Source: Flammula alnicola
Taxonomy: Eukaryota > Basidiomycota > Agaricomycetes > Agaricales > Strophariaceae
Direction: 5' to 3'
DNA length: 29,148 bases
Assembly (NCBI GenBank): GCA_015499995.1
Contig: JADNRV010000500.1
Coordinates: 1-29,148 of the forward strand
Position 1 is the stretch's first letter. The number at the start of each line of letters is the position of its first letter. The position numbers and the translations under genes are program-made. This document shows, in pieces, positions 1 to 21,663 of this stretch. The notes beneath the pieces were generated by a model. It made no database searches. It worked only from the letters and a program-made list of their open reading frames with translations, and was not told where the DNA came from.

Positions 1-241
1 GCTTCTAATGTCCCATTCTTGCTCACCCTGGGCTTGCGCGTCCTCTTGCGGATTTCTTGTATAAGCTTGTTCAAGCTTCTGTCAGCATCAGGGTATGCTT
101 CAAGAAATCGGTTGTCGTTACCACCCAAGCTGGATGAAACACATGAGCGGATGTGGGATACAACAAAAGGTGTGTAAAATCTCACCGCTGATACTCCGTG
201 AATAGAAGCTCTGGCTGACTGCGCAAACTTCCTGTCTTATC
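1..241 (-). CDS. Partial host gene fragment, two exons, runs off the window
   Basis: On the minus strand an open segment runs from about 241 to 186, is followed by a GTGAG donor at 185 and a CCAG acceptor at 130, and continues open from 129 to base 1. The phases agree (two bases plus one), giving a peptide that starts DKTGSLRSQPELLFTEYQ, has a GGNDNRFLEAYPDAD stretch, and then a basic run ending RKRTRKPR. I do not recognise the family. The basic run could be nuclear or nucleic-acid binding, but that is a guess. Joined to the right flank, the sequence just before GATAAG reads CTAAATACAG, which looks like a 3' splice site. If so, the big transposon landed at or beside an exon start of this gene. 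Short length keeps confidence modest. Confidence 0.4.
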
Positions 242-242
242 C
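235..242. repeat. Left target-site duplication (probable)
   Basis: TCTTATCC directly precedes the left inverted repeat. The right copy at 16922-16930 reads TCTTTATCC, the same word with one inserted T. An 8-bp duplication is what I recall for the KDZ/Zisupton group. A 6-bp reading (TTATCC on both sides) is possible if the right end extends three bases further. Confidence 0.6.
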
Positions 243-735
243 CACATAGGACAGTGTAACAATCACCTTAGTAACCTGAGTCCGGTAATCAACAAAATCA
301 CAATGATCACCGGGCTAGCCGCACTGACTTAGAAACAACAGCTGTCATGTGCTTCACGGTGCGGCCGGATCAGATACGAAATCGCGTGTCTCACGGTTCA
401 TTTGCATGCGACTGGGTCCTATAGGCACACCCAGGGCCTGGTTACCATACGGGGTTCGGTCCCGAGGGTGGGCGTAATGGCTTCCCAGGGGGCCCGGTAA
501 TCCATTCCCAGGGGGCCCAGGCGATTGATTCCCAGGGGGGCCAGCTAGCGCAGGATAATAGGGGCCCGGTAATTGGTCCCGAGGGCGGCCATATAAATGG
601 CCCTCGGGTTCTGCCTAGCATTCCTTTACACGTTCGTCCCTCAGCATGTACTCCCTCGGTCTCGCATATTCACCAGAAAATGATATGTAGTGTCATGTTG
701 TCTTCCACTGGATGTAGATGTAGAAAGCAAGCACC
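243..735 (+). repeat. Left terminal inverted repeat of the giant element
   Basis: Bases 243-633 are the reverse complement of 16531-16921 with one mismatch (374). Inward of 633 the match becomes patchy but resumes around 660-735, in the stretch running from the ATTCACCAGAAAA word to GTAGAAAGCAA. The TIR contains three copies of TTCCCAGGGGG starting at 482, 505 and 529 (spacing 23 and 24), flanked by GGTCCCGAGGG words. These are candidate transposase binding repeats or G-rich structures. Confidence 0.92.
592..598 (+). promoter_or_regulatory. TATA-like box inside the left TIR, facing inward
   Basis: TATAAAT lies in GGCCATATAAATGGCC, about 400 bases before the dioxygenase ATG at 995. Because it is in the TIR, an identical inward-facing copy exists at 16566-16572 on the minus strand. 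No other good TATA box was seen between here and 995. Confidence 0.35.
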
Positions 736-905
736 GTGGTGGGATGCTGCATTCAACTAACAGTTGAAATTGGTACTGTTATTTGAATTTAGCATCCCAC
801 CACTGGCCTTGCTTTCTACTTCTACATCCAGTGAAAGACGATGAGACAAACAAATACAGATCATTTTCCGGTGAATATGCGGGACCGAGGCAGTGCGTGC
901 CGAGG
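660..905. repeat. Long imperfect subterminal hairpin
   Basis: An arm at about 660-753 (CATATTCACCAGAAAATGAT through GGTGGGATGCT) is repeated in reverse complement at about 793-885 (AGCATCCCACCA through the CGGTGAATATGC word), with a loop of about 40 bases. The same word set occurs once more at the right end (16411-16490), so the element has three copies of one ~95-bp subterminal repeat, two of them head to head at the left end. Confidence 0.8.
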
Positions 906-936
906 GTCAGCCATTGTAAGATTTGACCCTCGGCAC
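897..936. repeat. 13-bp perfect inverted repeat with 14-base loop
   Basis: GTGCCGAGGGTCA (897-909) pairs with TGACCCTCGGCAC (924-936). It sits just upstream of the TET/JBP reading frame and contains the CCGAGGG word that recurs in the TIRs. It could be a protein binding site or an RNA stem in the leader. Confidence 0.75.
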
Positions 937-994
937 TTCCATTCAGCCAAAGGAACAATTGTACTAAATAAAATTTACTGCAATTTCCCATCAC

Positions 995-2307
995 ATGACC
1001 AGGTCACGTCAGGGAAATGAAATTATACGCTCTTTCTTCCAACCACAAACCATCATGACACCAGACATTGCACTTCACCTGACAGAGGCTATTTCTACTT
1101 ACATGAAAGCCAAATTTCTACAAAAGCTTCACTCCTGTGATGATGATGTCCCTTTCCCATCTGACTGGGACTTTACACTCTTGCAGGAATGTGACTTGGC
1201 TGTTGATGTCCTCACAGATGCATACAGCAGAAAATGTAAGTTGATCACTCTGCCAAGGGAATGATGTCAGTCATTAATTGAAGATTTGAAACAGATGTAA
1301 CCCAGTGGAGGGCCGACGACTATGTGGCCGAGTTAACCGAGAAGGCCACCGGTCGCAATTCCAAGGTAGAGGCCAAATTGGTCAAGAAGTTTCCTCCCAT
1401 ATTTTCGCCCACGGTCTACCAAACGGAACCATGCATAGTCACCGATATGGATGGAAATATCTTGGTCTGGTATATACCCGGGGCGCTGACAACACAACGT
1501 TCGGTGAGTGATTCTGTTGACGTCCTCGGGGGGCCAAGGTTGACCGAGGAGCGCCAGAGGCAAATGTGGGACGATATGCATCTACTGGAGAGATCCATCC
1601 ATACCAAGGGATGCAGTAGCTGGCGCGGGGGACCGAAATTTTTCAGAGCAGAAGAAGGATGGTTAAAACCAGGAAATGTTAGCATGGCACCAGCCTGGTT
1701 TCAGCAGGCCCACGAGGTAAATATGTGAATGCAGTTGCGATCCAAATAACTGACTTTCTCGCAGAAATCAAACAACATGGAAGTTTCTGCAGCACTGATG
1801 CAGAACCACAGCATGGCATGGGTGGAAAAGCAAATAAGAGCTTCAGCATTAGTTGGTGGAATGTTGAGTATCATGCACCCCGAGGTGTATGCCGCCGGAG
1901 TAGAAAGTCTCAAGTTGCTCGCCGGGCGCCCGAGGTCGATCAAAAAGGGGGATCAGCTCGCCGAGGTACTCCGAGTTTGGAGCTCCCCATTCACAGTCAT
2001 GACTATCATCAGCAACCGAGATACACCATTTCACCGAGACAATGGGGCAGCTCATCCATGGTTTGACATACTGGTGGCCCTCGGAATATATGAAAATGGA
2101 CGGATCGAATTTCCGGGATTGGGGATGAGATTAAAGTATGACCCAGGGACCGTGGTCGCTTTAACCGGCAGGCTTGTCAGGCATGGTGCTAATTGTCCCG
2201 GGGACCGAGCATGCATTGCATATCACATGAAGCAGAACGTTATTGAGGAGTTGGAGATTGCCAAGCCATCATGGGCAAATGAATCAATGTATTCAGACCA
2301 CTGTTAA
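995..2307 (+). CDS. TET/JBP-family 2-oxoglutarate/Fe(II) DNA dioxygenase (KDZ cargo)
   Basis: Exons are 995-1235, 1295-1716 and 1765-2307, with phases 1 and 0 consistent, giving about 401 aa. The family oxidises 5-methylcytosine in DNA using Fe(II) and 2-oxoglutarate, so a nuclear role is expected. The C-terminal exon carries the double-stranded beta-helix signature: HRD at residues 311-313 (metal His and Asp) in TPFHRDNGAAHPWFDIL, a second metal His at 361 in GRLVRHGA, and the 2-oxoglutarate-binding Arg at about 369 in GDRACIAYHM. The N-terminal part has VTDMDGNILVWYIPGAL, typical of fungal members. A GTGAGT...CCAG stretch at 1504-1557 (54 bp, in frame) may be a further intron, giving about 383 aa ending that block in RSRQMWDDM. 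A start at 1054 is the alternative to 995. Fungal TET genes are known to travel with KDZ transposons, as here. Confidence 0.88.
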
Positions 2308-2501
2308 TGCGGTGCCTATGGGGAAGATTTATATATATAACCAAATCAATCAATATATTGACCCAGCAATTTATATTCGACATGATAAAAAGTACATTTG
2401 TGCAAAACAAGAGCAGGGCCCTGGGGGAGATGATGCCGTGGGGGTTCAACAAACGAAAATGGCAGGCCCACGGCACATGGAGACCTACAAGGTGTTACAA
2501 T
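2308..2501. other. Convergent intergenic space
   Basis: This is the 3' space between the plus-strand dioxygenase and the minus-strand acidic-tail gene. It is AT-rich at first (repeated ATATATAA and ATCAATC words around 2330-2360) and likely holds both 3' ends. No separate gene is seen. Confidence 0.5.
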
Positions 2502-3872
2502 TTATTCATCTTCCTCATCTCCGTCATATTCTTGTTCACTGTTCTCCGAATCAACTTCACCCTCGGCATCCAATTCCCAATTGCCACTGTCACCCTCGGA
2601 ATCATCATTAGACAAGTTGTGCTCTTCAGAGCCATCGGAGTCCTGAGCGCGGAACTCTGACGGGATTGATTCTACCGACTCTGCTTCAGAGTCATGTGGG
2701 TTGCTCGCAGTGGAGTTCGCGGGCCCGCCGGCCGCCGGGGGGCTACCGTCTGACTGCCTAGGGCCCTCGGCCTCCTCTGATGCCTGCTGTTTGGCCCATG
2801 CTCTCCGTTTGATTCCATTCAAAATGCCATCGTGATGTTCGTGCCTCGGGAATATGTTCTGGTATTCCTCAGGCAATGAATCCCCATCTTGAAATGGTAT
2901 GCCATGCTTCGAATACACCTTGTCGAGTATGTCGTATGCCCCCACCCTCGCTGCAGATCTCTCTGCGGCTTCTTTACCCAAGATAATGGCACCGTTGACT
3001 CGAGTCTGGATGGAGTGAAGGCGTTCAAAAGCCAGGAGCAAGGTCTTACGGAGTGGTGCACAATTAGGACAGGTAGGAGCACTCCCAGGAACTGCGGGGG
3101 TACCGACCTCGGGCGTCCCGTGGGTCGTAGTCGCCGGTGGAGGTGGCCTCGCAGCTAGCCCAGGGACATCGCCTATGTTGTTGTGTTGAATGTTCTGAGT
3201 GCTTCCCAGAGCTTCCATTTGTGCCATATGTTTGTGCGTCACCTTTCAAAAGCAATGGATATTGTTGTAATAAAAAGAATTGGAGGAGCAAACTCACAGT
3301 TGTGAAAAAATCTTTGAAATGGGCTTGTATAATCTTGCAGGTGACTCGGGGCACCTCGGCCTCCGACTCGGGTGACTTCCACCAGTAACAGTAATCTTTG
3401 GTGCACCCGAGGATCTCGACATCTTGGTCAGCATTGAAGTCCATGTTAATGGATGCTGGAAGGGTGTTGGCCTCGGGCTGCCGAGGGGGATTAGTCTCGA
3501 GGAGCATATCTGACAAATCCTTCAAAAGGTAGGGGATCTGAATTCGGAACCCGTTGACTGTGCAAAACCCAACGTGAGTGAGTACTTGCTCCTGTGGGAT
3601 GAATGACGATGTTGTTAGACCATCGGCAGTGTTCAAAGGCGCAATATGCGTACAGCTTCATCTTGAATGTTCTGCTTCCAGTTCAAGATTTTCCAATTGC
3701 GATCACGGGACATCACTGTTCTTATTGCGGTCCGAAGCCGGGCCATTAGCAGATGCAACTTCAACCTTGCACTTGCCTCCCGATCTTCATAAGAGATGGG
3801 CATTCGGGCGTCGGGTGGTGGGGAAACAAGGTGTGGTAGAGGCATGGTGGTGGTTGAAGGAGAGAACAACAA
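2502..3872 (-). CDS. Unknown KDZ-cargo protein with acidic C-terminal tail
   Basis: Three exons on the minus strand, 3654-3872, 3298-3591 and 2502-3242, join in phase 0 at GTACGC...CACAG and GTGAGT...GAAAG introns (62 and 55 bp), giving about 417 aa. I do not recognise a named domain. The middle exon is the most structured part: VGFCTVNGFRIQIPYLLKDL, then VEILGCTKDYCYWWKSPE and VTCKIIQAHFKDFF. The last exon has a helical stretch (LRKTLLLAFERLHSIQTRVN, KEAAERSAARVGAYDILDKV) and then a long disordered Ser/Asp/Glu tail ending YDGDEEDE. Such tails occur in histone chaperones and other chromatin proteins, but that is only a resemblance. It is convergent with the dioxygenase and tandem with the transposase, from which it is separated by 154 bases, so it may share chromatin context or readthrough. 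Confidence 0.75.
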
Positions 3873-4026
3873 TAAACTTGAACTTTGGAACTGATGATCT
3901 GAGATAAGATCATGTGATCAGACCTATAATTGGAATGATATATGGAATTTCGGCGTTCCCATGGCCGATGATATGCCGCGGGGCCCACTGGGGTGAGTTA
4001 GTAAAGACCATAATCACAGATTTGAA

Positions 4027-7000
4027 CTACAGTACAAGCCGCCATACGCACACGTGACTACTGTTAGCATTAGAAAAAATGACTTCTGATACCCGCCCGA
4101 GCTCGTTCCACATTGCCATTTGTTTCTCGGCGTAGGCTCGGTGCCCACGGGAGACTTCCACCTCGGGGTCCCTCCGTGCCTTCCATTTTTCTGCCATGTG
4201 CACATACCACCGGACGGTCCATTGCATTTCATGCTTTGTAAGATTCAGCTCCTCGGCCCAGCGATTGTTCTGAGCTCTTGCACGTAGCCAATTTACCCGA
4301 TAAACTGATGGAATAATTAGATTTGAATACTCAGGACAAGAAGAGAGCTTACATTCATTCTGGTGTTCAGTGTCGGTGGCCGAGGTCGCTACCAGACGAG
4401 CAGATGAGCTCCAAAACCATGGGAGGCGGTCCCGACTTTGGCCAGCTGAATTTGGATTGGAAATGGTAGTACTGATGCGGCAATGCTCTAATTCAAGGAA
4501 TGGATATTTGATAGCAACAGTTTCACGATTGCCAAGGGTCATCATGACAGTCCTGTTGTGATTGTACACCCGTCGGTGAAGCTTCCACGTCCGGTTCAGC
4601 AACTTGACTTGATCCCAGGCCCGCGTTGTCTGTACCCCCGACCTCGCAGTTCGGACCTTGTTTTTGAACTGCCAAGAAAGATGTATGACGGCTGTCCGAA
4701 CCAGGTCTAGTGCATCGTCCCCGTGGCCCTCACGAATGTCAAGCTCATTTGCCCGGAGGGCTGCGATGACAGCTCGGCGCTCCGCGGGGAGGGTGGCAAT
4801 GAAGTCTTCTGGAATGGCCGAGGGGAATGGAAGAAGTTGGCCCTCGGGGTCCGCTGCACTATTGTCCATTCTCTGTTTCATTTCTCTTCCTCGCTGACAT
4901 CCTCATCCACAACAACTGCTTCCACATCATAAATACTGTCCTGGCATCTTCTCCGAGATATTCAATGCCAGCATTTGTGAAAGCTCGGATTCGGTTTTTG
5001 AGCTGTCGTCGCTTGTTAGCTAACTCCAGCTTCTGCGCAGTTGTCGGCCTCCGACCCAGCTTGCGTACGTGATCACGAAGTTCAAATCTTACACCATTGG
5101 ATTAGCTTCAGATTGGGTATATGTTCAGAATACTTACTGCGATTCTTCTATCTTTAGACCTTTTGAGATCCAGGCTGCTTGCCCAGTCTGCCCACCGGTG
5201 TACAACTCTTTCTCTGATAATTTGAGTTCAACTTCACATCGGGTGAGAGCTGCGGGGAGAGACATTGAGATACCATAATAGCCAGTGGTACTGAAGACTA
5301 ACGTTTTTCGACTTTCAGGTTCATGTAGTCCATGCTTTTTACATCCTCTTGACGGCGCGCCTCGGCCTGTTCAATTTCTCGCTTCCATATTGGAACTAAT
5401 TCCTGCGGACAGGCCTCGGTGAATTCTTCGAAGTATTTTTCGCTTTCTGCCTGCTCCTTAACCGCCCGTTCATACTTATTCACTATGGTGGATGCTAAGG
5501 TCATATATATTGAGACATAATTCAGGAACCAATGTGATGGAAGCACTCACCCATGTTGATTGTTTTCTTCCAATTAGAGTCCCCCATATGGTCATCGACG
5601 ACCTCGGTCCGGTGGGCGGTGGTGGCCGACCGGAGGCTTCGAGAGATTGCATTCAGCACAGCCCAGAGGGTCTCGAGGATTTCACCATCGATCACACCGA
5701 GGCCGGGAATGTAAGTGGTAGCATACCGAGGGAGGCAATCATCTTTATGACCGTGAACATGAAATAAGCCGATGGCCTTGACGATTGCAATGCCCTGAGG
5801 GAGGGTGAGGCCTGTGTGGTCATAGAAACGGTCATCTAGGTGGACGCCATATTCACACATGATATCATAGATTAGGGCGACTGTTTCAATGGAGCCGATA
5901 TTGGTGGTTTTGAGGGCTTCGGAGAACGAGTAGTCCATATTCATCTGCTTCTCACCCTTTTGGAAATCCACCACACTGCTCGGGCAGAAGCACCCATGGC
6001 GAGCACATGCATTGGCGCCGATGCCCCGAGCACGTTTTCCAGGACCGCTCTTCTCACCATCCAGAACAGCACGATGGGAATTGCAAGCTGGCTTCTGAGA
6101 ACAGAAACAATATCAGTACATGTGACCTGAAATGCTAGATCTCAGATGCAGTAGTCAACTACATCGGTGCCCGTGGGTAAGTGTATCGGTGCCCGAGATG
6201 TTCAGACCACCGGTGCCCGAGTGGTGCATGCCGTCGGTGCCCGAGGAGGAAACCATCAGTGACGGAGCCTGTAGGACATCTGCGACCGAGGGTGCACCCA
6301 TCGGTGCCCGAGTGGGAATCACCTCGGCATCCGAAATGTGATGATGCTACTGTCGATGCCCAGCTACCGATGCCTCATCGGCCACTGACGTTCTTCCTCG
6401 GCCACCGAATTGATAAAGAATCGGCCACCGAGGTCGTTAACACACGGCCACCGATCGTGTTTGCAGACAACAAGAATCAACTCACTCGTGTATAACGGGG
6501 TGCCTTAGCAGTCGCATCCTTTAAATGTTCCTGGTATGGGCCGGGGGCAGTCATAAAGCCTTCTCCGTGGGTGAGGTGCACATCGTCAGCTTCATTTTTT
6601 GGAGTGAGATGCTCTGCCTTGAAATTTCCATCTGCCGTGAATACCCTGGTGTATAACTCCCTACAATGGACAGTGAATTTGGATACCAATTTATGCATGA
6701 ATTGTCGACTGCATACCTGTGAGGGTCATCCTGCCAATTAGCAGGGAGATTCACCCCTGGCTGGGGACATGCTGGGCAGAACGACGCCAACTTTCCTCGA
6801 GGTACATTGTCCGTGGCCATCGGGGTTCCAAGATCATTATCTGAACCTTCGTGCAAGGCCGTCGGCGCCGTCAGCGGTGCACCATCAGTGGTGCCCGCGG
6901 TGATGGGGGCTGCGGGAAGTGGCATCTGAGGAATGCCCTCGGGCTCATCATGAGCACGGCCATGCATTTTCCACTTTTTCATATTTCTGTATTCCCTGCT

Positions 7001-8181
7001 AAGCCTTCGGAGCTCCCGATATCTGTTGAGAACCGCTTTGGGGAATGCAGGACACGTCAACCTCCTCAACTTCTGATAGTATTGGTATGACGAAGTTTTG
7101 CATTCCAGATTGGATAATCGATAGTCTTTCAGGACGTTGAAAGTGAAGACAGTTTGAATTCGGATGAAGCTCGTTGGGAATAAACCCATCTTCAGGTAGG
7201 AAATGTCCATGTCAGAGTCGGCGTCGTTACATGAACATCCAATGACTGGCAGATGATGGATCCCGGAAACATCAACAATCGTGATAAAAGGATTACCATG
7301 ATTGTCATAGGGTGGAGGCCGCGGGAGAGTGCTCGGATGTGCAGTTGTCGGCGCCTCCATGACATCGACATCGTCGTCATCATCATCATCACCCTCGGCG
7401 GCCACAGGGATTTCCGGATCAGCCCACATGTCACCCTCGAAGCCAGCTTCTGCAGTGGCAGCTGGTGTGGGGCCGAGGTCATATCCCTCGGCATTGTCTG
7501 CCACAGAATCAGCGTTAGCTCAACAGTATGATAGTAGCTTACCATCAGAAGGCTCAGTTTCCCTCGGCCTTGTCGCCGACCCGGGGCATGGCATTCCATG
7601 ATGGCCGAGGTATAGTTTAACGCCAACTTGCCACAGGGCTCCCACCTTGAAATAACGCCCATTCCATGTCTCGACACGATGAAAGGGGAGAAACTGGTGT
7701 TCCTTCTGGAAACACAGACCACAGAGGAGGCGCCCACCGGCACATTGGTTACAACGCCATTTGCCTGCCCGGCGGCCACACACCTCGCATCTCTCCATAG
7801 GATCCCGCGGTGCTTCCATCGCCAAGATTGTCTTCAAATAGTCGGGTCGCCGAGGCACCCATTCCCGCAGGAAATCGTTTTGCGACTGCTTGGCATTAGA
7901 ACTGCTCCATCGGTCATCCTCGGCATGCTTACCTTGCCACCGGGCCGTATGTCTGGCAGATTTCGGACATTATCAATTACGTCCTGCTCCGTCGGGTCTC
8001 CGAGGTAAACCTCGGGTTCCACAGGTTGCCACGGCTGCTGAACTTCGGGTACCACTCTAGTCTCGCTTCCTCCTTTCCTTTTTTTTTGCCTTTTCCCCTT
8101 GTTCTCTTTCCACCATCCCATCTCCCGTGGTTCATCGTCACTGGACTCACCAGAATCAAGGGTTTGGACGCGAGTGCTCAT
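4027..8181 (-). CDS. KDZ transposase with N-terminal CxC2-like cysteine cluster
   Basis: Ten exons on the minus strand: 7933-8181, 7543-7885, 6717-7497, 6486-6660, 5551-6094, 5303-5494, 5138-5249, 4937-5087, 4353-4893 and 4027-4304. All phases agree and give about 1121 aa. Residues about 116-152 hold CEVC...CNQC...CGLC plus two His, the cysteine cluster that precedes KDZ transposases. Then come ECKTSSYQYYQKLRRLTCPAFP and FCPACPQPGVNLP. The catalytic core shows ADGNFKAEHL (Asp 468), GIGANACARHGCF, IYDIMCEYGVHL (Asp 593), FHVHGHKDDC and IDGEILETLW (Glu 654/657), which I infer to be the RNase H-like acidic residues. The C-terminal part has the family's NTR-type and WLRARAQNNRW helices. It would bind the TIRs and excise and insert the element. 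The frame is intact. The 4894-4936 intron is only 43 bp and the least certain; the 6095-6485 intron is exceptionally long. Confidence 0.93.
6095..6485 (-). other. Unusually long (391-bp) transposase intron
   Basis: The donor is CGA|GTGAGT at 6485 and the acceptor CTCAG|AAG at 6095, both in phase 0, joining APRYTR to KPACNSHRAV as expected for the family. The other introns of the gene are 43-56 bp. This one is filled by a ~23-bp minisatellite (separate entry). Confidence 0.85.
6163..6455. repeat. ~23-bp minisatellite built on TCGG-N3-CCGA dyads
   Basis: Units start near 6163, 6185, 6210, 6233, 6256, 6279, 6300 and 6323 (spacing 21-25). A related block follows at about 6353-6455 with units near 6378, 6398, 6421 and 6444. 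The core is TCGGTGCCCGAG in the first block and TCGGCCACCGA in the second. Both are the palindrome TCGG-N3-CCGA. Between the cores the sequence is mostly unconserved, so the dyad rather than the whole unit is what is maintained. Confidence 0.85.
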
Positions 8182-8831
8182 GAGATGAACCAGAAGCAGA
8201 GAGGGAAAGAATGGTGGAGGGAGGAGAATATTCCTCTTCGCCCCTTCTTTTGAGTGTTTACCACTCGTTATCTATTCCCCCTGTCATAATCGGATCATCA
8301 TTAAGACGTCTCAAAAATAAATTCATACTAGGAGAACATGAGGCGGAACACGAGCAACTAACATGAGGAAGACATGAGGGATGGCCGGCCACATGCCAGA
8401 CACATGTGGTGTTCTTTTTTTTGAGATCCCCATCTCACTTTCTGTATTTCACTGCCTTAATAAAATATATTCAGCATCTCAATACAAAGAAAATGGATGT
8501 ATCCGGAAGAAAATCTGAGCAGACATTGTGAAGATATGAAAAAAGACTTTCCATAACAGCTTGGGAGCATGATCAAAAGACAAAACAACTACTGAAATCA
8601 AGAATCCTCGTGCAGATCTCAACTTTTCTGAAGAGAAAAAGCAATATCTCAAGAACCACTGCTCGGATTCCTTTCCGGAGTATCTCATTCTGTTAATAAT
8701 TTACAAGTGTATATCCGTCCATTTTTATATATATTAAACTTCCCCCAAGTAGCTTTGTGAGGGAGGAAATAGGACGGGTGTCATAAGACACCGAGGCCAT
8801 TTTCTACCGCGCGCAAAACTGCAAGCTGGGA
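8182..8831. other. Intergenic, upstream of the transposase gene
   Basis: About 650 bases, AT-rich, with no supported reading frame. It should hold the transposase promoter on the minus strand, but no convincing TATA box was identified. The words ACATGAGG, GACATGAGG and CACATG repeat loosely at 8335-8405. Confidence 0.4.
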
Positions 8832-9197
8832 CTAGCCCGTCAGATATGTTGGAACAGTAGGTTTAAAGAACATATTCCTCGAGCAGGAAAGTATGGGGTG
8901 GCTTTCAGCACTTCCCATGTTTACATTTTCTAATGTAAGTAAAACCTCCTCCCAGGGTGTAGATATTCCGTAAAAAAGTGAAATAACCAGGGGCCCCCGA
9001 GGGTGGCAGGTACATAACCTCATACACCAAGTTTTGACCCCAGGAGAGCAAAACAGGTGGAGATATTCATGTATCGTTTCCTCTACGTCGGCCACAGTGG
9101 AGGATGACGTCGCCTCAAAACGCAGATCTTGGCAATAAGAACTGTCATTTAGAGAATAGGCTCGGCAGGCACCGTCGATCACGATGCTTAAATTCAT
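8832..9197 (-). CDS. Small hypothetical ORF, weak
   Basis: A single minus-strand frame of 121 aa starts at an ATG (MNLSIVIDGACRAYSLNDSS) and ends PTVPTYLTG. It is cysteine-containing (CQDL, CSPG, CMRLCTCH) but has no motif I recognise, no signal peptide and no clear splice sites. It lies divergent from the plus-strand gene at 9411, with about 210 bases between. Composition is compatible with coding, but length alone does not prove a gene; it may be an exon of a longer transcript or chance. Confidence 0.3.
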   Translation of the reverse strand: MNLSIVIDGACRAYSLNDSSYCQDLRFEATSSSTVADVEETIHEYLHLFCSPGVKTWCMRLCTCHPRGPLVISLFYGISTPWEEVLLTLENVNMGSAESHPILSCSRNMFFKPTVPTYLTG

Positions 9198-9376
9198 AAA
9201 GTGTGATCTTGATCAGGCACAATGACATCATATGACATCAATGCACAATCGGCCACCGGTGATCTACCCTCGGCAAGATCAGGGCACAACATGTGGGTTA
9301 TCTTGATCAACCTCAAGGCGCATAGCCTCCGTTGATTATCATTGATAATCAGGATTAGCCGAGATCATGATCACCT

Positions 9377-9382
9377 TATAAG
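9377..9382 (+). promoter_or_regulatory. TATA-like box before the WFGNH gene
   Basis: TATAAG lies 29 bases upstream of the ATG at 9411, implying a very short leader if used. A TCGGCCACCGG dyad variant lies further upstream near 9249. Confidence 0.35.
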
Positions 9383-9410
9383 AGTCTCAGCTGCGTATTT
9401 CTTAACTAAG

Positions 9411-11599
9411 ATGACTGAACCCACCCCCAACGAATCCTCTGGCAATCTGAACGATGATGGCGCTGTTGCCTTCGACTTTGACAATGACACTCCTGACTCC
9501 CAGATCTGGACTGCGAAGGAAAAGATGATACTGAAAGCGCACCTTGAAGGTTACCGAGGGGCCCCGCGGAAAACAAAGTCCTCCTATGTTGCAACTACAG
9601 TCGTTCCCGAAATCAAAGAGACGTGGAAGGGCCGATATGACAAAAAGAACATGAAAAAGGACCGCGCGATTAAAAAGGAGTGGGAAAAAAAGAAATATGT
9701 GAGCGTCGGTCGGTGTCCGTGGACCTACTCTGATTCCGGCCCCGAAGCAAATATTCACCTGGTTTGGGAATCATGCGGCCACCGAGCGCGGTTTGAAGAT
9801 CCCAGGAATCAACTTGAATGTCACATTTGATACCGTGGTTCAGGCGAAAAAGAAGATGGAGATCCAAGAAGAGGCCAGGCGGCTGTCCGGTGGCAGCGAA
9901 GATACTAGGAAATGGTTACCCTACTACCAGACTGCCAAGAAGTCGATCAAGGAGACATTGTCGGAGGCCGAGCGAGAGGAGTATGAACGGGAGGTGGAAG
10001 AATGGAAGACCACGGGCATTCCAAAGGAAGTCCAAGCTGAGTGAGTGGTCCGGTGCCCGCACGTCGGTGGCCGAGACTGATTCATTCAGGACGGCGTCCC
10101 GACACGGCAAGAAACTCATTCACAAAATGGACCAGCTGAAGTGGAAAAGCATGAGAATGAGAACGTTTTCATTTGAATGCCACTATAATACCGAGGGGAA
10201 GATGTCGTATTCTGTGTAAGTCTATACCCCTATTATTTTATCAGCCAGGCTTAAACTCGTAGTCAGTTTTGATACACAGAGTTTAGTGGCCGACGGCACA
10301 TTGTCGACTCCAGCGGACTCGAATTCCACCGGATACCGCGGGGTCAGACAAGTTCCTACATTTTCCCAATATGATCCAACGGCATACCAAGCCATGAAGA
10401 AGGCTTACCTGAAGTACATCAAGCACATAGCCTCGATCGAAAAAGGGACAGAGCCCGCGGCTAACACAGTGACCAACTTCACTATGGCAGATCTGAAGTG
10501 CGAGCCCTCGGGCCTGCCGCGGCTGCCAGATCCAATCCGGAATTCAAACAGCATTGAAACAAATATCATACGGCAACAAATCATTCGTGCATATGTGGCG
10601 AAGCATTATCGTAAGGAGCACTAACATGATAGAACAATTGAAAGCTTACCCCGTGGTGTAGATCTGGCTACAGGAAAGAACGGGCCCGTTCCATATACAG
10701 CAATCCTTCCAACATGGACCGAATTTGTACTGCCAATCTACCTGCCGCGTAACATTCCCTTGAAGGATCCCAGCAAATATGTCAGTAACGAAACGCATCA
10801 GATTCTGAAACTATGGAGGAATCGACAGGAACGGGGAGAAATTACATTCAAGTTTGATTGCACCTTGGGCGAAGATAAGCTGCCCGAGGAGGCTGACTAC
10901 CCCGCGGGCCTGTTTCGTAATATAGTATCCCCGGGCCCGCGGTCTTCAAGTGTTCCTAGGGAGAGTTTTGCAATAAACCAACCGCATAAATCGACCTTCA
11001 CTTCGGCCACACCCAGCGATTCCGAGGATGAGGAAGATCAAGATGAACTACCATTCAAGAAACATAGGGCTGCATGCTCAGATGATGACAGTGACGAAGG
11101 GGGGCAGCCCGAGGTCGTGTCGGTAGATAACGACAAGAGTACTGGACAAAAGGATAATAGCCAAGATGAGCAGAGTGAAGACACAGAGACTCATCAGGCC
11201 GGGGGGACAGGACGGTCCAAACCGAGGCATCCAATTGCAGCAGAGCATCCTCGGGGCCGGCTACTTGTGACGCCTCAGGGTACCCGAGGTGACCATTCAC
11301 AGGACTTTGGTTCCAGTCCAACTCTGCAAGGGTCGTCCCCAGCGGTTAACAACAGATCTCGGGCACCACTTAGACGAGCACCATTGCGCCGCGGGATTTT
11401 ATTGACCCCAGAACCCAGTAATGCGTCAACCCCGGCACCGCAAGAGGAGCCACGTGCACTTCGATCGAAGACGAAAGCCGAGGCAGCAGTTCAGAAAGTG
11501 CAGTCCAAGACGAATGCAAATACGGGCACCGAGGGAGCTATGAAGACACGGTCCAGGGCCAGGGGGAGCCCATCAAAGACAAGGGCCAAAAAGACTTAG
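9411..11599 (+). CDS. KDZ-cargo protein with WFGNH motif and basic disordered tail
   Basis: Five exons, 9411-9698, 9748-10040, 10090-10213, 10280-10610 and 10662-11599, give about 657 aa with consistent phases; the 10214 donor is the least certain. The N-terminus (WTAKEKMILKAHLEGYRGA, then a Lys-rich helix KKDRAIKKEWEKKK) leads into IFTWFGNHAATERG at about residues 98-111. That resembles the WF/WY-x-NH motif that I recall from many agaricomycete proteins of unknown function. A Glu/Lys-rich helical segment follows (KKSIKETLSEAEREEYEREV), then a conserved-looking globular part (YLPRNIPLKDPSKYVSNET). The last ~200 residues are disordered: acidic patches, TGRSKPRHP, RRAPLRRG, and a basic end KTRSRARGSPSKTRAKKT suited to nuclear import or DNA contact. 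Function unknown; a DNA- or chromatin-binding role is inferred. Two of its introns contain the TCGG-type dyad. Confidence 0.8.
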
Positions 11600-11877
11600 T
11601 AGAACTATGTGTATTTGGTAGTCACAATTCAGTGTTGCATGGTTGGCAGTCACTTAGATCACACTTTGGGACAGCAAGACAGGATCAATTAAACATTATA
11701 AAACAAATATATAACAGACAAAAAAAAAGGGGCCCGCAGCAAGTGCATGTGTGGTCGAAGGGCCACGGGCCCCGAGGGCGGCATCGTCAATCAGCTACAA
11801 AAAAGAGGCGGTGCAATGTCACCGAGGGGAGGAGGGAGGCAAGAGGACTACTATCTACAAACACGACCAACCTGCCC
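11600..11877. other. Convergent intergenic space
   Basis: This is the space between the 3' end of the plus-strand WFGNH gene and the minus-strand zinc-cluster gene. It contains an A-run near 11720 and a GGGCCCCGAGGGCGG word like those in the TIRs. No gene is supported. Confidence 0.4.
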
Positions 11878-14088
11878 TACTTCTTGCCAGCGGCCTTCGG
11901 CTTCCGAATGGTTCCCTTCACTTTCGAGCCACCTGCCTTCACCGGGGAGTGTTGAGGTTTCGCCTTCTTCGGGGCCGCTGGTTCCTCATCCTCATCGCCG
12001 TCGGCATCCCCGCGGCCCTTCCGCTTCTTCGACTTGGGTACCTCCACCTCGGGTTCAGACTCCTCACTCGAATCGACACCCGGGGAAGGGCAATCGCCTT
12101 CATTCGATTTCGCGTATGGTCAGCCACCACGGAAGGGATGGCCTCCTCTTCCTCCTCTTCAACGTGCGGTGCCCTCGATGCACTAGATGCTGAGCCACCA
12201 GTTGGCCGAGATGGGATGGGCCGAGGTGAGGGCACAGTGGCCCCTGGGATGGGTGGCGCCAGTGGTGTCGATCCAGCTGGGATCTCTTCTTCGCTGTCGC
12301 TGATCGGGGGGCCCTTTCGACTGGGTGCAATGAGGGGCCGTGGGGTCGGCGCCTTCGGTGCAGGCGAAGGCGTCCGCGGGGCTCGGTGACCGTGGTCGGT
12401 TGTGGGGTTTTTGGCTGTGGAGTTGCCTTGGGGGGTGTATTGGGGGGCGGGGGTGTCTGAGGCCGAGGTGTCGCCTTCTTGCTGGGGGGCGGGGGCAGCG
12501 TCTGAGGCCGAGGGGTTACCTTGCCGGGGGGTGTTTTAGCCCGCGGGGGGGACAGTGCTGGGGCTGACAGTGCAGCTGAGAGGCCGAGGATGAGCTCCTT
12601 CAGCTCACCCTGCCCCTTGGCATCATATGCCGTCCTCGACCGGAGGGCGGTCTGCACCGCCCTCATCTCCCTTCGCAACTCCCTGTTCTCCTCCTGTGTT
12701 GCTCGCACCGTCTGGAGGAGCTCAACGAGAAGCTCCCCCAGTGTCGCCGGCCCGTCGGGGTTCTCACCTGCAGTACCCGCACCTGGAACACCATCGGCAC
12801 GGGAGGGGGCAGGCCCGAGCAAGTCAGCGAGGGCATTCAGGGGGGTGTCGAGGTCAACGACGATGGGGCCCGAGGACCGGGCATTGGGGAGGCACCCGAT
12901 CTTGCGTACCTTGCACTGCCAGCATGCCTTCGGGCCCGCCTTCTTGAGGGCCTCGGGCGTCCACAGGCACCGTCGGCTGTGCTTCATGCAATGGATGCAC
13001 TTCTCCTCGAGCTCGAGGCAGTCGGCAGGAGGGGCCTCGGGGCGGGTCTGGGCGGCTTTCTTCGCCTCGGCACGTGCCTGTACGGTCTCCAGCGGGGGTG
13101 TCTCGTCGTCCGACCCGTCGGACTCGTCGGTGTCCACCGCGCTCTTTGCCTTCGACTTAGGCTTGGGCTTGGCCTTCCCTTTGCCCTTGCTCTTCTTCTC
13201 CTCCTTCTCTTCGTCGTCCGAGCTCTCCACCGTCGGCTTCGATGTGATTCTGCGCTTGGTCACCTTCGGCGCCTTCTGTTTGTCGACCGGTGGTTTCCCC
13301 TCCTTGCTCCCTCTACTCGGTGCCGGCGTCCGCTCAGCATCATCGCGACTCTTCTTTTTCCCCTGGGCCTTCGCACCATCCTTCGCCCGTGGGCGTCTGC
13401 TACTCTCCTCTTCCTCACTCGACTCCGACTCCTCTGGCTCCACCGCCTTTGCTTTCCCCTTTGCCTTCCCACTCGCCTTCACCTCGGCGTCTTTCTCCTG
13501 TCTTCCCTGCCTCTCCTCCTCCTGCACATTCCCTTCGGCTCCCTTTTGCTTCGCTTTCTTCACCTCTGGCCCCTCGGTCCTCTCCCTTCGTCTCTCCACA
13601 CTGTCCTTCTCCTGCACCTCACCCTCGGCCTGTCTCGTCTCGTCCTCCCTCCGCTCCACGCCCTCGGCACCTCGGTACTTCGCCCCTGACACCTTGTGCC
13701 CCTCCACGGCCTTCCAGTCCTCAAACTTGCGCCTGTACTTCTTCACACTCTCGAAGTCCGCATTTAGCTTGACGGTGCCGTTGGGCAGTTTTGCCTGGCC
13801 CTTGATGAATACCCGGACCCAGAAGTCCAGGAGGCGGAACTCGTCCGCGGGGCGCTTGTAAACCTCCAGCGCTTTGTTTGCTTCATACTGAGATACACTG
13901 TGAGTATCAAATGGAATATAATGACAACTCAGACATACCAGGTCCAGGTACAATCCCTTCTGGTTCCTGTAGAACCCCTCCTTGTCGTCCGTGTCGAGGT
14001 AGCGCGTCACGCGCGCTTCGAATCCGTCAGCCAGCCGATGTGCTTGCGCCTCTGAGACGTTGGGTTGTTGGGTTGTGGGTGATGGCAT
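11878..14088 (-). CDS. KDZ-cargo protein with binuclear zinc-cluster-like motif (3' part frame-shifted or spliced)
   Basis: Exon 1 is 13939-14088, followed by a 51-bp in-frame intron (13888-13938, GTATGT...CTCAG) and a long exon. The N-terminal ~100 residues look globular (LADGFEARVTRYLDTDDKEG, FWVRVFIKGQAKLPNGTVKL). A long Glu/Lys/Ser-rich disordered region follows. At about residues 345-381 sits CIHCMKHSRRC and then CWQCKVRKIGC: two C-x2-C-x6-C halves 14 residues apart, as in fungal Zn2Cys6 DNA-binding domains. A coiled-coil-like stretch comes next (TVRATQEENRELRREM). The frame stays open to 12100. However, the convincing tail sits in two other frames: PPISDSEEEIP...EEEEEEAIPS (about 12400-12110) and then EVEVPKSKKRKGRG...KAAGKK stopping at 11878. 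Two introns or two frameshifts in C/G runs are needed. A transcription-factor-like role is inferred. Confidence 0.7.
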
Positions 14089-14316
14089 TGCGGATAATGG
14101 AGGGCGGGGGATCGAATTGGAAGTGGGTGGGATGGAGGACGGTGGATGGAGATGGTAGTGGTAGTGGTAGTGAAAAGAGAGCGCTCGAAATGAACTTGGC
14201 CAATTTCAACCTTGTACAAACAAACACAACATGTGTCACGTGACCTGCCCGGGCTCCGATAAAGGCTACCGATCGATAAGGAAATCAGTCAACTTGCCTT
14301 TACGCTCCACTCATCC
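14089..14316. promoter_or_regulatory. Divergent promoter region of the two right-hand cargo genes
   Basis: 228 bases separate the minus-strand ATG (14088) from the plus-strand ATG (14317). The region contains a GGTAGTGGTAGTGGTAGTG microsatellite (about 14153-14171), CACGTGACC (14237-14245, an E-box-like CACGTG) and a CGATCGATAAGG word. It probably serves both genes. Confidence 0.4.
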
Positions 14317-16007
14317 ATGTCTAAGAATTTCTCCAGACGTTCAGCAGCAGCACACGAGGTGTCTCCAGCTGTGAAAAGCCCCAGTACTTCTCTCCAAATT
14401 GCTGGCAATCAAGCAGGTAATCAACAGTCACACCCCGCGAACACTATGCATAGCAGGATTATCAACACTGGTGCAGGCTCACCCTTGTTGACTTTATCCA
14501 ATGCTTTGGACAAGTTAAGCATACCACCACCGAAGAAGCCCGTCAAGCCCACCGGGGCCGAGGGACGTGTAGCCAGCCAGCCATTCGAGCTCAACCCGCG
14601 CTCCACACTCGCTCTCTCTTCTGACTCAGACTCCGAGTCCGGGCCCGAGTTGACAGAAGGCTGTACACCTACTGTGGCCGCGGGACGTCATACCGAGGGC
14701 CCCGAACCAGTGCCCAACATCGCCAGCCAACCCTTTACCCTAATCCCACGGTCAGAGGTTATTCTCTTATCTGACTCGGAGGCCGAAGTTGTCCCCATGG
14801 GTATACTATGCAGCCAGCCTTTTGCATTGATCCCGCGGGGCAGGCATGCTATTGATATATCCGACTCGGAATCAAATCTGCAGCCCGAGGCCAGCCAGCC
14901 ATTCGCACTAGTTGACCGAGTTCAGGTCTCATCTGGTAAGTTTTTCTCCTTACTTAAGTCTTCCACAAACTCAGACTACAATCAGATGATGAGGCCCCTC
15001 ATGTGATCGATGTTCGTAAATCGGTGGACACATTGCTTGGTAAGTCAGACTTAGCCATTTGCATCCCAACCTGACATTGGATCAGGCACCAATTCCTCGG
15101 ACGCTGATGCCTGGTCGCCCTCGGGATCCACGCCGCAGCCACGTCTACTGCTCCACTCAATTAAGGCCGAGCAGCTTGAGGCAATATTAGGTATGGTCTG
15201 CAACTGTCGGCATGCCGAGGCTGACTGACCCCTCCATTAGGCAGTGATTCTGACTCCGAGGTGTCCACAAAGGGCAAGAACATAGCAGTTAAAAAGGACT
15301 TTCAGGAGCTCGAGAACATGTCAGGCAGTAAGTGTCATATTGGACATTGTGGAGTCTAAGCTGATCACATTCTGAAGACACGGCTATGATTGTAGGAAAC
15401 ATTCAACAGAGCTTCGGTGAGCCTTCCATCGTCCCAGTACCTGTCACTAGCTTACCTTTGATCAAGATTCCGAGGCTGAACCAGTGGGGCCATCGGGCAC
15501 TCCGGCGTCTCTCGCGTGCGCACCCAAACCCTCTTGGGTGGAGGTGGTGGATGCCGTTATTGACGATGCCCATGGGCCGAATACTTTTTTCAGACCACCC
15601 CCGGAAGCCAGGTTTGTTTCCAACAGGAATGTCCACACCCGCGGGGAGGGACCCATGACCCCGGTCGCCGCTTATGAACGTCCCTTGAAGCCATCGGACA
15701 TTGAGTTAGATTCGACAAGATGCATCTCGAACTTCAACCCGCCGATAAAATTTGTGAGTATATATTCACATTACTTGTCTATACCACTGAACACAGTCCA
15801 TAGTCATACACCGAACAGCAGCTCTATAACGTCCATATGGGAGTTTTAGACTCGGACTTCGATGACAACACGTATGAAAACAAATTACACGTGTTTAACA
15901 GTGCTCGTCGTAACCAGTTGCAGGCCGAAATTCTTTCTGTGAATATCCTTTCCGAGGTGGGAGATGAACTCGAGAGTATCAAAGATCTTTTGCGCCCTTG
16001 GATGTAG
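14317..16007 (+). CDS. KDZ-cargo protein with tandem SQPF / SUMO-interaction-like repeats
   Basis: Seven exons, 14317-14935, 14986-15039, 15086-15190, 15241-15327, 15378-15416, 15467-15753 and 15804-16007, give about 464 aa. Five of the six introns are phase 1. The first exon has four copies of a repeat opening SQPF-x-L (residues 87, 137, 166 and 193). The first three continue with a hydrophobic core and an acidic serine run: LALSSDSDSES, EVILLSDSEAE and AIDISDSESN. These fit the SUMO-interacting motif pattern (three or four aliphatic residues followed by phospho-acceptor/acidic residues). More such words appear where small exons join (HVIDV, GSDSDSEVS, SFDSEAEP). The C-terminal exons are different and probably folded or helical (YTEQQLYNVHMGVLDSDFDD, ELESIKDLLRPWM). 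Family unknown to me; binding of SUMOylated chromatin or PML-like nuclear bodies is inferred. Confidence 0.78.
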
Positions 16008-16410
16008 TTACACGACTGAGTATGGCTGTAGCATATATTACCATGACAATAGCATGTAAATGATATCAACTTGGGTCAAATAAAAGACAGTTAAAATATG
16101 CTAACTTGAAAATCATTCAGTGCAGAAAATCATGTATGACTGGCCCGGAGGCCCTGCACCCGAGGGTCGACAGTTGCTCCGCAGGGGTGCTCAGTCGAAT
16201 TACATGACATGAATAGTAGTGGACCGTGATGCAAATATGGTTAAAAATTCCTGAAAATTGGGATGACCACGGTGGGTTCTATCGGCCGAGGGTTGACATT
16301 TCACCATTATCACCTACCTGCGATAGAAAAACATGATTCGCTGCATAGTCTAAATGTGTTGGTTAACTTCAGGGGTACTTTTCTAGTTATGACACCAATT
16401 TAGACTGTTA
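16008..16410. other. Right subterminal non-coding region of the element
   Basis: About 400 bases between the last cargo gene and the right TIR. It contains CACCCGAGGGTCGACAG (about 16158-16174) and CGGCCGAGGGTTGACA (about 16282-16297), two versions of a CCGAGGGTYGACA word. The left end has the related CCGAGGGTCA at about 900. No gene is seen. Confidence 0.5.
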
Positions 16411-16921
16411 TTTGCTTTCTACTTGTACATCCCCTGGAAGACAATATGTCAAAACTACAGATCCTGTTTTCTGGTGAGTGTGGGAGACGATGCAGGGTAT
16501 GCTGAGGGACAACCAATTTTTGTGGAATGGACGTGTAAAGGAATGCTAGGCAGAACCCGAGGGCCATTTATATGGCCGCCCTCGGGACCAATTACCGGGC
16601 CCCTATTATCCTGCGCTAGCTGGCCCCCCTGGGAATCAATCGCCTGGGCCCCCTGGGAATGGATTACCGGGCCCCCTGGGAAGCCATTACGCCCACCCTC
16701 GGGACCGAACCCCGTATGGTAACCAGGCCCTGGGTGTGCCTATAGGACCCAGTCGCATGCAAATGAACCGTGAGACACGCGATTTCGTACCTGATCCGGC
16801 CGCACCGTGAAGCACATGACAGCTGTTGTTTCTAAGTCAGTGCGGCTAGCCCGGTGATCATTGTGATTTTGTTGATTACCGGACTCAGGTTACTAAGGTG
16901 ATTGTTACACTGTCCTATGTG
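16411..16921 (-). repeat. Right terminal inverted repeat of the giant element
   Basis: Bases 16531-16921 mirror 243-633. The inner part, 16411-16530, matches the left subterminal sequence only partly: TTGCTTTCTACTTGTACATC corresponds to the hairpin arms at the left end. The terminal base pairs are CACATAGG at the left and CCTATGTG at the right. Confidence 0.92.
16566..16572 (-). promoter_or_regulatory. TATA-like box inside the right TIR, facing inward
   Basis: This is the reverse complement of the TATAAAT at 592-598. On the minus strand it would drive transcription into 16500-16008, opposite to the upstream plus-strand gene ending at 16007, so antisense or regulatory transcripts are conceivable. 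Confidence 0.25.
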
Positions 16922-16930
16922 TCTTTATCC
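16922..16930. repeat. Right target-site duplication (probable, one-base insertion)
   Basis: TCTTTATCC directly follows the right inverted repeat and matches TCTTATCC at 235-242 apart from one extra T in the T run. Confidence 0.6.
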
Positions 16931-17687: not shown

Positions 17688-18481
17688 ATGTCCCAGGCTC
17701 CCTTCCTCAGAGAAAACCAAGTACAATGTGGGAGTTGCTCCAGGGTTTTATCGATTTCTGGATCCAAGACATGTGCAGCTTGTAAGGCTAGAACATACTG
17801 TGTTCGTATGGTCATTTCTATTTGCAAGAATTTCTTATAACTTGAGTTGCATTATCACAGGGAAAGGAATGCCAAAAGGCCGATTGGCCTCAGCACAAGA
17901 AGTTCTGCTCACCAGCTGAAGAGTCTTCTAAGTGCATCCGAGCATATGATGCTGCATTTAGCGATCTTCTTCTTTGCCTTGCCCAGTCCATTCTGGACTT
18001 TTCCAGTGTTGCAAGGGTTCCCATTGAGCAACGTCGGGAGGCATGGCTCCCCATCTGCCAAAATCAACTGGTATTGCTCCATTTCCGTTCAGTGCCAAAT
18101 CCTGCCCCAGGTCGCCACAACCGCATCCGCCTCGTTGAGGTTAATCTCGACAATATTGCTGACCTAGGTGCAGAGAGAGCCTCCAGCGTTACCACAAGAC
18201 TCTCCGACCGCTTCCCTTCCGTTTGTTTGGGTTTTGCTGTCATCCCTGATGACCCCAATGTTTGTGGCACTGTCGATGTCATCACCCACCATTTCGATTG
18301 GCCCGAGCTTTTTGCGACGTCTGCTGCTATAGCAATTCAGGCGCCGTTGTGTCCGCCTTCTGTCGGAGACATCCTCAACGCTATACTGGAACGTAAGCAA
18401 AGGTTAGAAAGGGAGGCTCTTCAGCGTTATGCCTCCTCTGCCTCCACTTCTGCCTCTGGTGACAAGAAGAAGAAGAACTAG
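17688..18481 (+). CDS. MYND-type zinc finger protein
   Basis: Two exons, 17688-17801 and 17861-18481, with a 59-bp phase-0 intron, give 244 aa. The finger is split by the intron and reads CGSC...CAACKARTYC, then GKECQKADWPQHKKFC: the full MYND pattern C-x2-C...C-x2-C...YC-x3-CQ-x3-W-x2-H-x3-C at about residues 14-54. MYND fingers bind two zinc ions and mediate protein contacts, often with proline-containing peptides. The remaining ~190 residues are unrecognised (LLCLAQSILDFSSVARVPIE, RIRLVEVNLDNIADLG) and end in a Ser-rich, Lys-rich tail DKKKKN. Many agaricomycete genomes hold numerous such uncharacterised MYND proteins. The donor GTTCGT is non-consensus, but it alone restores the finger. This is a host gene outside the transposon. 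Confidence 0.88.
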
Positions 18482-20370: not shown

Positions 20371-20708
20371 AATTGGGAAAACCAGTTTTCCTGATGTAGA
20401 GAAGTGAGAAAGCTTCCACCACTACTATGGCCCACCACCGATTAGGCACTACCTACATCTATACTATAAATCGAAGAGGGTCTTTCACACGTGACAGACA
20501 AATGCCTGTCACAATTGCTCACAGACAAACATGTCACGTCTCTCTGCCGTTCCACATCTAGGCCAACGGCACGCCCGTGCGAAGCACGGGTCACACGCTC
20601 GTCATTTAGAACGATGTTAATTTATTAAATTACCCTTAGTCTCTTGTAGGCGTAGATAAATGTCAAATTGTAACAATTGTAACATACCATTCAGGGCTTC
20701 TCCCTTTA
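20371..20708. other. Intergenic, holds a Helitron-like hairpin
   Basis: No reading frame is supported. Features are a TATACTATAAAT word near 20460, CACGTGACAG near 20490, and the GC-rich hairpin listed separately. Confidence 0.4.
20574..20590. repeat. Hairpin resembling a Helitron 3' end
   Basis: CCCGTGC-GAA-GCACGGG is a perfect 7-bp stem with a 3-base loop, the hairpin type found just inside Helitron 3' ends. On the plus strand it is followed by TCACACGCTCGT, which is not a canonical CTRR end. On the minus strand it is followed by 12 bases and then CTAG, which fits CTRR, although the next base is A instead of T. No Rep/helicase gene is in the window, so at most this is a terminus of a short or degraded copy. 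Confidence 0.4.
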
Positions 20709-21661: not shown

Positions 21662-21663
21662 TA

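What the first reader, a model, noticed from the sequence alone, without database searches (positions are those of the whole stretch)
243..16921. A 16.7-kb KDZ transposon carrying a multi-gene chromatin toolkit
One pair of near-identical TIRs encloses a transposase, a TET/JBP DNA dioxygenase, a zinc-cluster-like protein, a SUMO-interaction-like repeat protein, a WFGNH protein and an acidic-tail protein. KDZ-TET association is known; a defined unit with this whole cargo set at precise ends is not something I know to be described. Inference: the cargo rewrites or reads DNA methylation and chromatin so the element can escape silencing or time its transposition.
Basis: partly seen in the sequence, partly recalled or inferred. 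Interest (0 to 1): 0.9.

Follow-up and report, generated by a model that had tools for sequence, protein, structure and literature searches.

The report
Jumping gene carrying anti-silencing kit
In the mushroom Flammula alnicola, a 16.7-kb jumping element carries five genes (its transposase, a TET-like DNA-methyl-oxidising enzyme and three proteins of unproven function) whose protein sequences show purifying selection across copies, and which would likely help it undo the DNA methylation that its resident copies appear to suffer.

Summary
The unit is real. Inverted repeats of 401 nt (243-643, 16521-16921) enclose five genes: TET/JBP dioxygenase, KDZ transposase, WFGNH protein, zinc-cluster-like protein and SUMO-interaction-motif protein. 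The "acidic-tail protein" is most likely the transposase C-terminus. The host genome (Flammula alnicola) holds nine two-ended coding copies, one an assembly chimera; eight carry all five genes in one order. Of eight non-chimeric two-ended copies (one non-coding) whose flanks I read, five have perfect 7-bp duplications. Between subfamilies all five genes show dN/dS of about 0.2-0.4. Zinc-cluster and SIM genes were found only beside these ends (18 of 18, 19 of 19 loci). Resident copies show a strong CpG C-to-T excess, the transmitted lineage a weaker one, as expected if resident copies are methylated and the lineage partly escapes. Complete TET-bearing Kyakuja elements with 7-bp duplications were published in December 2025, so the kind is known. 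Additions here are the long repeats with 24-bp iterons, the co-inherited five-gene set under selection, and the methylation-like footprint. That the zinc-cluster protein steers TET to the iterons is inference. The window copy has frame-breaking differences in the transposase and zinc-cluster genes, and other species could not be searched for the unit.

The parts
243..643 (+). left terminal inverted repeat, begins CACATAGGACAGTGTAAC
   Evidence: same end in other copies
16521..16921 (-). right terminal inverted repeat
474..544 (+). 24-bp iterons, about 3 copies, in the left repeat
16620..16690 (-). 24-bp iterons, about 3 copies, in the right repeat
235..242 (+). left flank TCTTATCC, possible damaged target-site duplication
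   Evidence: imperfect, perfect only in other copies
16922..16930 (+). right flank TCTTTATCC, possible damaged target-site duplication
1306..2307 (+). TET/JBP dioxygenase, exons 1306-1716 and 1765-2307; 5' exon and start uncertain
   Evidence: Pfam; matches CcTET chains E 2.7e-36 and 2.8e-36; model (its first exon is interrupted in C59 and C119)
2502..8181 (-). KDZ transposase model with CxC2; acidic C-terminus 3242-2502; frame-breaking net loss of 5 nt at 4861-4942 in this copy
9411..11599 (+). WFGNH protein, 662-aa model, 5 exons; function unproven
11877..14088 (-). zinc-cluster-like protein, CX2CX6C-X14-CX2CX6C at about 13002-12895; 1-nt loss at 12377 in this copy, so the C-terminal reading is uncertain
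14317..16007 (+). SIM-like repeat protein with four S[QRE]PF repeats, 452-aa model

Best explanation
This is a five-gene KDZ (likely Kyakuja-type) transposon with 401-nt inverted repeats, whose genes show purifying selection and are predicted to serve the element itself by keeping its DNA out of CpG silencing. Predicted steps: (1) the transposase would recognise the CACATAGG ends and insert the element; 7-bp duplications are seen, the enzymology is inferred. (2) Resident copies are likely CpG-methylated by the host, inferred from CpG C-to-T decay. (3) The TET enzyme would oxidise 5mC on the element, inferred from homology to CcTET. (4) The zinc-cluster-like protein likely binds the 24-bp iterons inside the repeats and steers TET and/or transposase there, with the WFGNH protein as a further chromatin factor and the SIM protein as a SUMO-dependent bridge to host proteins; all of step 4 is inference.
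For: Colinear copies with distinct perfect 7-bp duplications. All five genes in one order in eight of ten two-ended elements, including diverged C49. dN/dS 0.21-0.37 in comparisons between subfamilies (one 139-codon transposase comparison 0.13), all nine A-B and A-C tests below neutral under three transition weights, p at most 2.2e-3. TET keeps HxD, the distal His and the Asp that PMC12730594 calls essential for 5mC. Private C>T at CpG: C264 68/83, C119 34/52, C59 19/28, C548 13/17, against 20% expected. Resident 134 CpG: 46 other against lineage 99:168, p 5e-15; non-coding per-site ratios 10.0 against 2.6. Iterons vary in number with subfamily; inner repeat, zinc-cluster and SIM genes diverge most.
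Against: No methylation, expression or binding data. Host DNA methyltransferase not found out (requests unanswered). The CpG contrast was not calibrated on transposons without TET, its two classes cover partly different stretches, and survivorship of unmethylated copies would also give it. Iterons were not found in the left end of C49, which has the same genes. The window copy is frame-broken in two genes and no copy is free of stops or frame differences in all genes by these models. Within subfamilies several genes still show low ratios (WFGNH 0.19). The WFGNH fold model failed.
Confidence: 0.55

Rival explanations
1. Ordinary TET-bearing Kyakuja: TET acts genome-wide without targeting, and the other three proteins are transposition accessories (end binding, complex assembly) with no role in methylation.
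For: PMC12730594 suggests non-targeted TET action in Agaricomycetes; iterons inside terminal repeats would suit transposase or accessory binding as well.
Against: Does not by itself explain the faster divergence of inner repeat with zinc-cluster and SIM genes, which is weak evidence.
Confidence: 0.33
2. Cargo serves the fungus, as in Starship-like elements, or is passenger DNA.
For: Multi-gene cargo; WFGNH stays constrained even between close copies (0.19).
Against: Genes were not found outside the element family apart from C534; several genes lose constraint within subfamilies (TET 1.4-1.5, SIM 0.6-0.9); in every copy some gene is broken.
Confidence: 0.06
3. Chance adjacency or assembly artefact.
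For: C415 is a chimera of C264 and C548 flanks; the window is on a small contig whose copy has indels that could be sequencing errors.
Against: Independent copies with distinct duplications and the same content.
Confidence: 0.02

Closest known systems
TET-bearing Kyakuja transposons (Kojima 2025, PMC12730594; parts 1-4 of 7, sections 26 and 34 and passages read)
   Same: KDZ transposase plus AG-type-like TET, 7-bp duplications, CA...TG termini, Agaricomycete host, proposed escape from silencing
   Different: Kyakuja-1_LB and -2_LB are stated to have no TIRs; here 401-nt repeats with iterons. The text has no mention of HMG, zinc or SUMO and I saw no description of this cargo set
KDZ-TET linkage in basidiomycetes (Iyer et al. 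2014, recalled; not held)
   Same: Linkage of KDZ, TET and further proteins, recalled to include a divergent HMG that the WFGNH protein may correspond to
   Different: Recalled as gene neighbourhoods; whether this set was listed could not be checked
Cryptococcus KDZ1-3 (PMC12810828, passages)
   Same: KDZ elements of 9-11 kb with 139-241-bp TIRs
   Different: 4-8-bp duplications, CxC1 instead of CxC2; no TET mentioned in the passages seen
Arabidopsis VANDAL/VANC anti-silencing (PMC5735166, passages)
   Same: Layout only: tandem motifs in the element that vary in number, and a fast-evolving candidate DNA-binding protein
   Different: Plant Mutator-like element; no oxidase; here binding is untested
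Spm/En TnpA (recalled)
   Same: Accessory protein that binds subterminal repeats and counters methylation
   Different: No oxidase; unrelated transposase

Membership tests
KDZ superfamily | KDZ transposase domain | tested here: met
   PF18758 E 2.3e-37, with CxC2 PF18803 E 2.3e-18
Kyakuja | 7-bp target-site duplication (Zisupton and Dileera 8 bp, PMC12730594) | tested here: met
   perfect in 5 of 8 non-chimeric two-ended copies read; C323 6 of 7 bases; window imperfect; C49 none; C590 not read
Kyakuja | 5'-CA..TG-3' termini | tested here: met
   CACATAGG...CCTATGTG
Kyakuja | absence of TIRs, as stated for Kyakuja-1/2_LB (not said to define the group) | tested here: not met
   401-nt TIRs
Kyakuja | transposase clusters with Kyakuja in a tree | not tested
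   no named reference sequences were at hand
AG-type TET | HxD...H triad; Asp337 kept; Gly or Ser at Gly331 (positions as in PMC12730594) | tested here: inconclusive
   triad and Asp kept in the six copies compared; at the Gly331 position Ala in window, C548 and C9, Ser in C264, C59 and C119
VANC-like anti-silencing | element-encoded protein binds its own tandem motifs and removes methylation there | not testable with these tools
   only the layout is seen
Zn2Cys6 cluster | CX2CX6CX5-12CX2CX6-8C (recalled) | tested here: inconclusive
   CX2CX6CX14CX2CX6C; six Cys kept in seven copies and C49; Pfam E 5.8, below cut-off
HMG-box protein (WFGNH) | HMG-box profile match or fold | tested here: not met
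   no HMG match in Pfam at E up to 10 (HMMER filters drop most weak matches); structure model pLDDT 33, not usable

The most novel reading that the evidence does not exclude
The element encodes a self-addressed demethylation machine: its zinc-cluster protein reads the 24-bp iterons in its own ends and brings its own TET oxidase there, while the SIM protein recruits SUMO-dependent host factors, so that each subfamily wakes only its own copies: a VANC-like address system joined to an enzymatic eraser in one mobile unit.
Probability: 0.28. Interest if true: 0.87.

Novelty: new variant of a known kind. Interest (0 to 1): 0.62.

Why it matters
TET genes on fungal transposons are known, but whether they serve the transposon, and how they would find it, is open; Kojima 2025 states that the function is not experimentally validated. 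This family offers precise ends, near-identical young copies, diverged subfamilies with their own iterons, and a sequence footprint that looks like methylation of resident copies and partial escape of the lineage. It names a candidate address protein and address sequence that one binding assay could test.

Tried and rejected
Separate acidic-tail gene: judged more likely the transposase C-terminus. Extra stretches of 2058, 1776, 599 and 1106 nt in C548, C59 (two) and C119: read as nested insertions, because those in C548, C119 and the 599-nt one repeat 8-9 flanking bases; the 1776-nt one repeats only ACGG; not searched for family. C415 as an independent copy: rejected. Structure of WFGNH: pLDDT 33, no fold search made. 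HMG: no Pfam match; only GTF2I at E 0.02, below cut-off. Other species: SIM search gave 6 of 6 Flammula; WFGNH 4 of 4, and with an alignment 7 Flammula plus 2 unnamed metagenomic proteins; these searches reach only relatives sharing short words; zinc-cluster, TET and transposase were not searched there; other fungal genomes could not be searched for the unit.

Not found out: host DNA methyltransferase, empty insertion sites, and the stretches beside nine TIR-like ends (C140, C210, C223 at three places, C534:245329, C856, C159, C201), which lie on contigs or regions without the five genes. In C49, 108,700-121,499 was not read, so its pairing of ends is less certain.

Limits: loci were grouped by hand, whose counts are lower bounds (one search scored 145 of 167 candidates). 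Tallies leave out TET matches at 25-46%, KDZ at 57% (C268) and weaker, and two WFGNH matches at 24%. dN/dS uses script-made gene models; transposase introns may pass round the frame-broken stretch. Low-ratio exceptions within subfamilies are told in the full report. C9 was outgroup, not a resident copy, and C447 (three C>T) was left out there.

Papers: searches showed no paper with this five-gene set or with Flammula transposons; the library lacks most subscription papers. PMC12730594: parts 1-4 of 7, sections 26 and 34, passages. PMC5735166, PMC8889193, PMC12810828, PMC7641404: passages. Others: listings. Iyer 2014: recalled.
Full report
What is there. The window holds 401-nt inverted repeats, 99% complementary, at 243-643 and 16521-16921. 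It is contig C447 of a held genome of 74.4 Mb in 861 contigs. Protein labels and contig lengths (129,452, 130,429, 56,229, 51,931 and 31,341) identify the host as Flammula alnicola. Inside lie five genes: TET/JBP dioxygenase (+), KDZ transposase (-), WFGNH protein (+), zinc-cluster-like protein (-) and SIM-repeat protein (+). The sixth, the acidic-tail protein, is best read as the end of the transposase.

A mobile unit. The exact 18-base end occurs 17 times, reversed control 0; with up to 2 mismatches 39 times, control 2. Facing pairs define ten two-ended elements: C447, C264, C548, C415, C59, C119, C590, C9, C49, C323. C415 is a chimera. Identity to the window copy over aligned bases: C264 98.4%, C548 99.7%, C59 91.3%, C119 91.1%, C9 91.5%, and over partial copies C55 89.8%, C239 99.9%. 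C239 shares the left flank of C548, so it is the same site again. Perfect 7-bp duplications: C264 TTCAGAG, C548 GTGCCAT, C59 GTCCAGT, C119 CATCACG, C9 GAACATG. C323 matches 6 of 7; the window matches only with an indel; C49 has none. C590's flanks were not read.

The set travels together. Searches of the genome with each protein, grouped by hand: zinc-cluster genes at 18 loci and SIM genes at 19, each on a contig with an end within or near; WFGNH at 15, 14 with an end; close TET at 10 of 10; close KDZ at 11, 10 with an end. Eight of ten two-ended elements hold all five genes in one order. C9 lacks window 6.3-12.2 kb, so WFGNH and the transposase N-terminal half are gone. C323 is 3.2 kb with 1044-nt perfect inverted arms and no match to the five proteins beyond one chance-level hit. 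C49, with end CACATGGG and 451-nt repeats at 95.8%, holds all five in the same order and orientation at about 30-68% local identity; its SIM match covers only the C-terminal third. No zinc-cluster or SIM match appeared near the more distant TET and KDZ families of this genome.

Selection. Between subfamilies A (C447, C264, C548), B (C59, C119, C55) and C (C9): TET 0.21-0.32, transposase 0.25-0.30 (0.13 in one 139-codon comparison), WFGNH 0.23-0.27, zinc-cluster 0.30-0.37, SIM 0.32-0.37. In nine tests under three transition weights all are below neutral, p at most 2.2e-3. In each of the B copies C59, C119 and C55, 21 of 22 zinc-cluster indels are multiples of three; C264, C9 and C239 have other frame breaks there. 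Within subfamilies the picture is mixed: C59-C119 TET 1.38, transposase 0.69, WFGNH 0.19, zinc-cluster 1.09, SIM 0.95; C447-C264 TET 1.54, transposase 0.31, WFGNH 0.19, zinc-cluster 0.38, SIM 0.62, on few changes. I read it as genes needed by the lineage and partly released after insertion.

Methylation-like footprint. Private C-to-T changes at CpG: C264 68 of 83, C119 34 of 52, C59 19 of 28, C548 13 of 17, C9 63 of 140 (mostly lineage changes), C447 1 of 3; 20% expected. In the first four the CpG rate is 8 to 19 times the rate at other C. The window copy has five private changes, the fewest. In lineages A and B, polarised by C9, the ratios are 2.7 and 3.0; 134:46 against 99:168 gives p 5e-15. 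Split by site: non-coding 10.0 against 2.6, p 1.2e-4; third positions 6.7 against 2.1, p 0.023; first and second positions 19.3 against 3.5, p 2.4e-10. The resident class includes 6.3-12.2 kb, the lineage class does not, because C9 lacks it. I read this as resident copies being CpG-methylated and the lineage that transposes less so. Survivorship of unmethylated copies would also explain it, and no TET-less transposon was used as a control.

Possible address. The repeats hold 24-bp iterons: about 3 copies in A, 3.8 in B, 5.8 and 7.6 at the two ends of C9, 2.5 in C323, none found in the left end of C49. Between A and B, 500-bp windows over zinc-cluster, SIM and right end differ by 9-24%, the inner left repeat by 16%, and the TET-transposase-WFGNH core by 3-10% except 16-18% at a repeat-rich stretch at 6.0-6.5 kb; the outermost left repeat differs by 6.6%. 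The six cysteines are kept in seven copies and C49. SIM-like matches: six overlapping in four places, against 0.016 in shuffles, 0 of 2000; two places are kept in seven of seven copies, one in five, one in three. The pattern was chosen after seeing the sequence. That the zinc-cluster protein binds iterons and brings TET is inference, by analogy with VANC21, which binds tandem YAGTATTAY motifs in its own transposon with loss of methylation (PMC5735166, passages).

Prior knowledge. Kojima (PMC12730594) described complete TET-bearing Kyakuja elements with 7-bp duplications and CA...TG termini, no TIRs in two Laccaria families, and proposed escape from silencing. In Pleurotus intact KDZ elements were all preceded by CxC2 (PMC7641404, passages), as here. 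Iyer 2014 is recalled only. The kind is therefore known; the iteron-bearing long repeats, the five-gene set under selection and the CpG footprint are additions as far as the held papers show. Placement in Kyakuja rests on duplication length and termini, without a tree.

Weak points. The window copy has a net loss of 5 nt at 4861-4942 in the transposase against all five copies aligned there, and 1 nt less at 12377 in the zinc-cluster gene than C264, C548, C59, C119 and C55, while C239 agrees with the window; assembly error is possible. By these models no copy is free of frame or stop differences in all genes. After rechecking, the probability of the novel case was set to 0.28 (0.30 in the returned draft) because iterons were not found in C49, which has the same genes.

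Noticed in passing
window 638-906: Imperfect palindrome (arms 638-689/855-906 and 691-764/775-848, 84-87%) just inside the left repeat; only a part recurs at the right end (16412-16453).
   Followed up: no
window 6139-6315: Small direct-repeat array (ATCGGTGCCCGAG type) in the transposase gene, variable between copies.
   Followed up: partly
window 592-597: TATAAA inside the terminal repeat in the A copies C447, C264, C548; not found by the same pattern in C59, C119, C9.
   Followed up: no
window 20706-21664: Possible MITE-like unit bounded by 21-nt inverted repeats TTACAGGGTCTTGCATAAAAA at 95%.
   Followed up: partly
window 17846-18481 and 24138-24497: Flanking genes: part of a MYND finger (E 2.7e-4, just below cut-off) and a NUDIX domain (E 8.8e-8).
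   Followed up: partly
L029 (C323:109598-112802): Non-autonomous relative: 1044-nt perfect inverted arms with the same ends and iterons.
   Followed up: partly
G000 C323:355736-358950 and C779:212636-215832: A distant WFGNH match (24%) lies about 3 kb from a TET at 45-46%, hinting that WFGNH-type genes accompany other TET families.
   Followed up: no
L030-L032 (C49:88996-123547): Diverged five-gene family, 34.5 kb between ends; 12.8 kb of it not read.
   Followed up: partly
window 1206-2307 and 4001-5500: Fixed sites group A with B in TET (50 against 23) and transposase 4001-5500 (36 against 21), but A with C in 10 of 13 regions: possible recombination between subfamilies.
   Followed up: partly
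P0014, P0015: Unnamed metagenomic proteins (contigs 3,565 and 4,738) match WFGNH at 30% and 41%, so the gene is not confined to Flammula.
   Followed up: no
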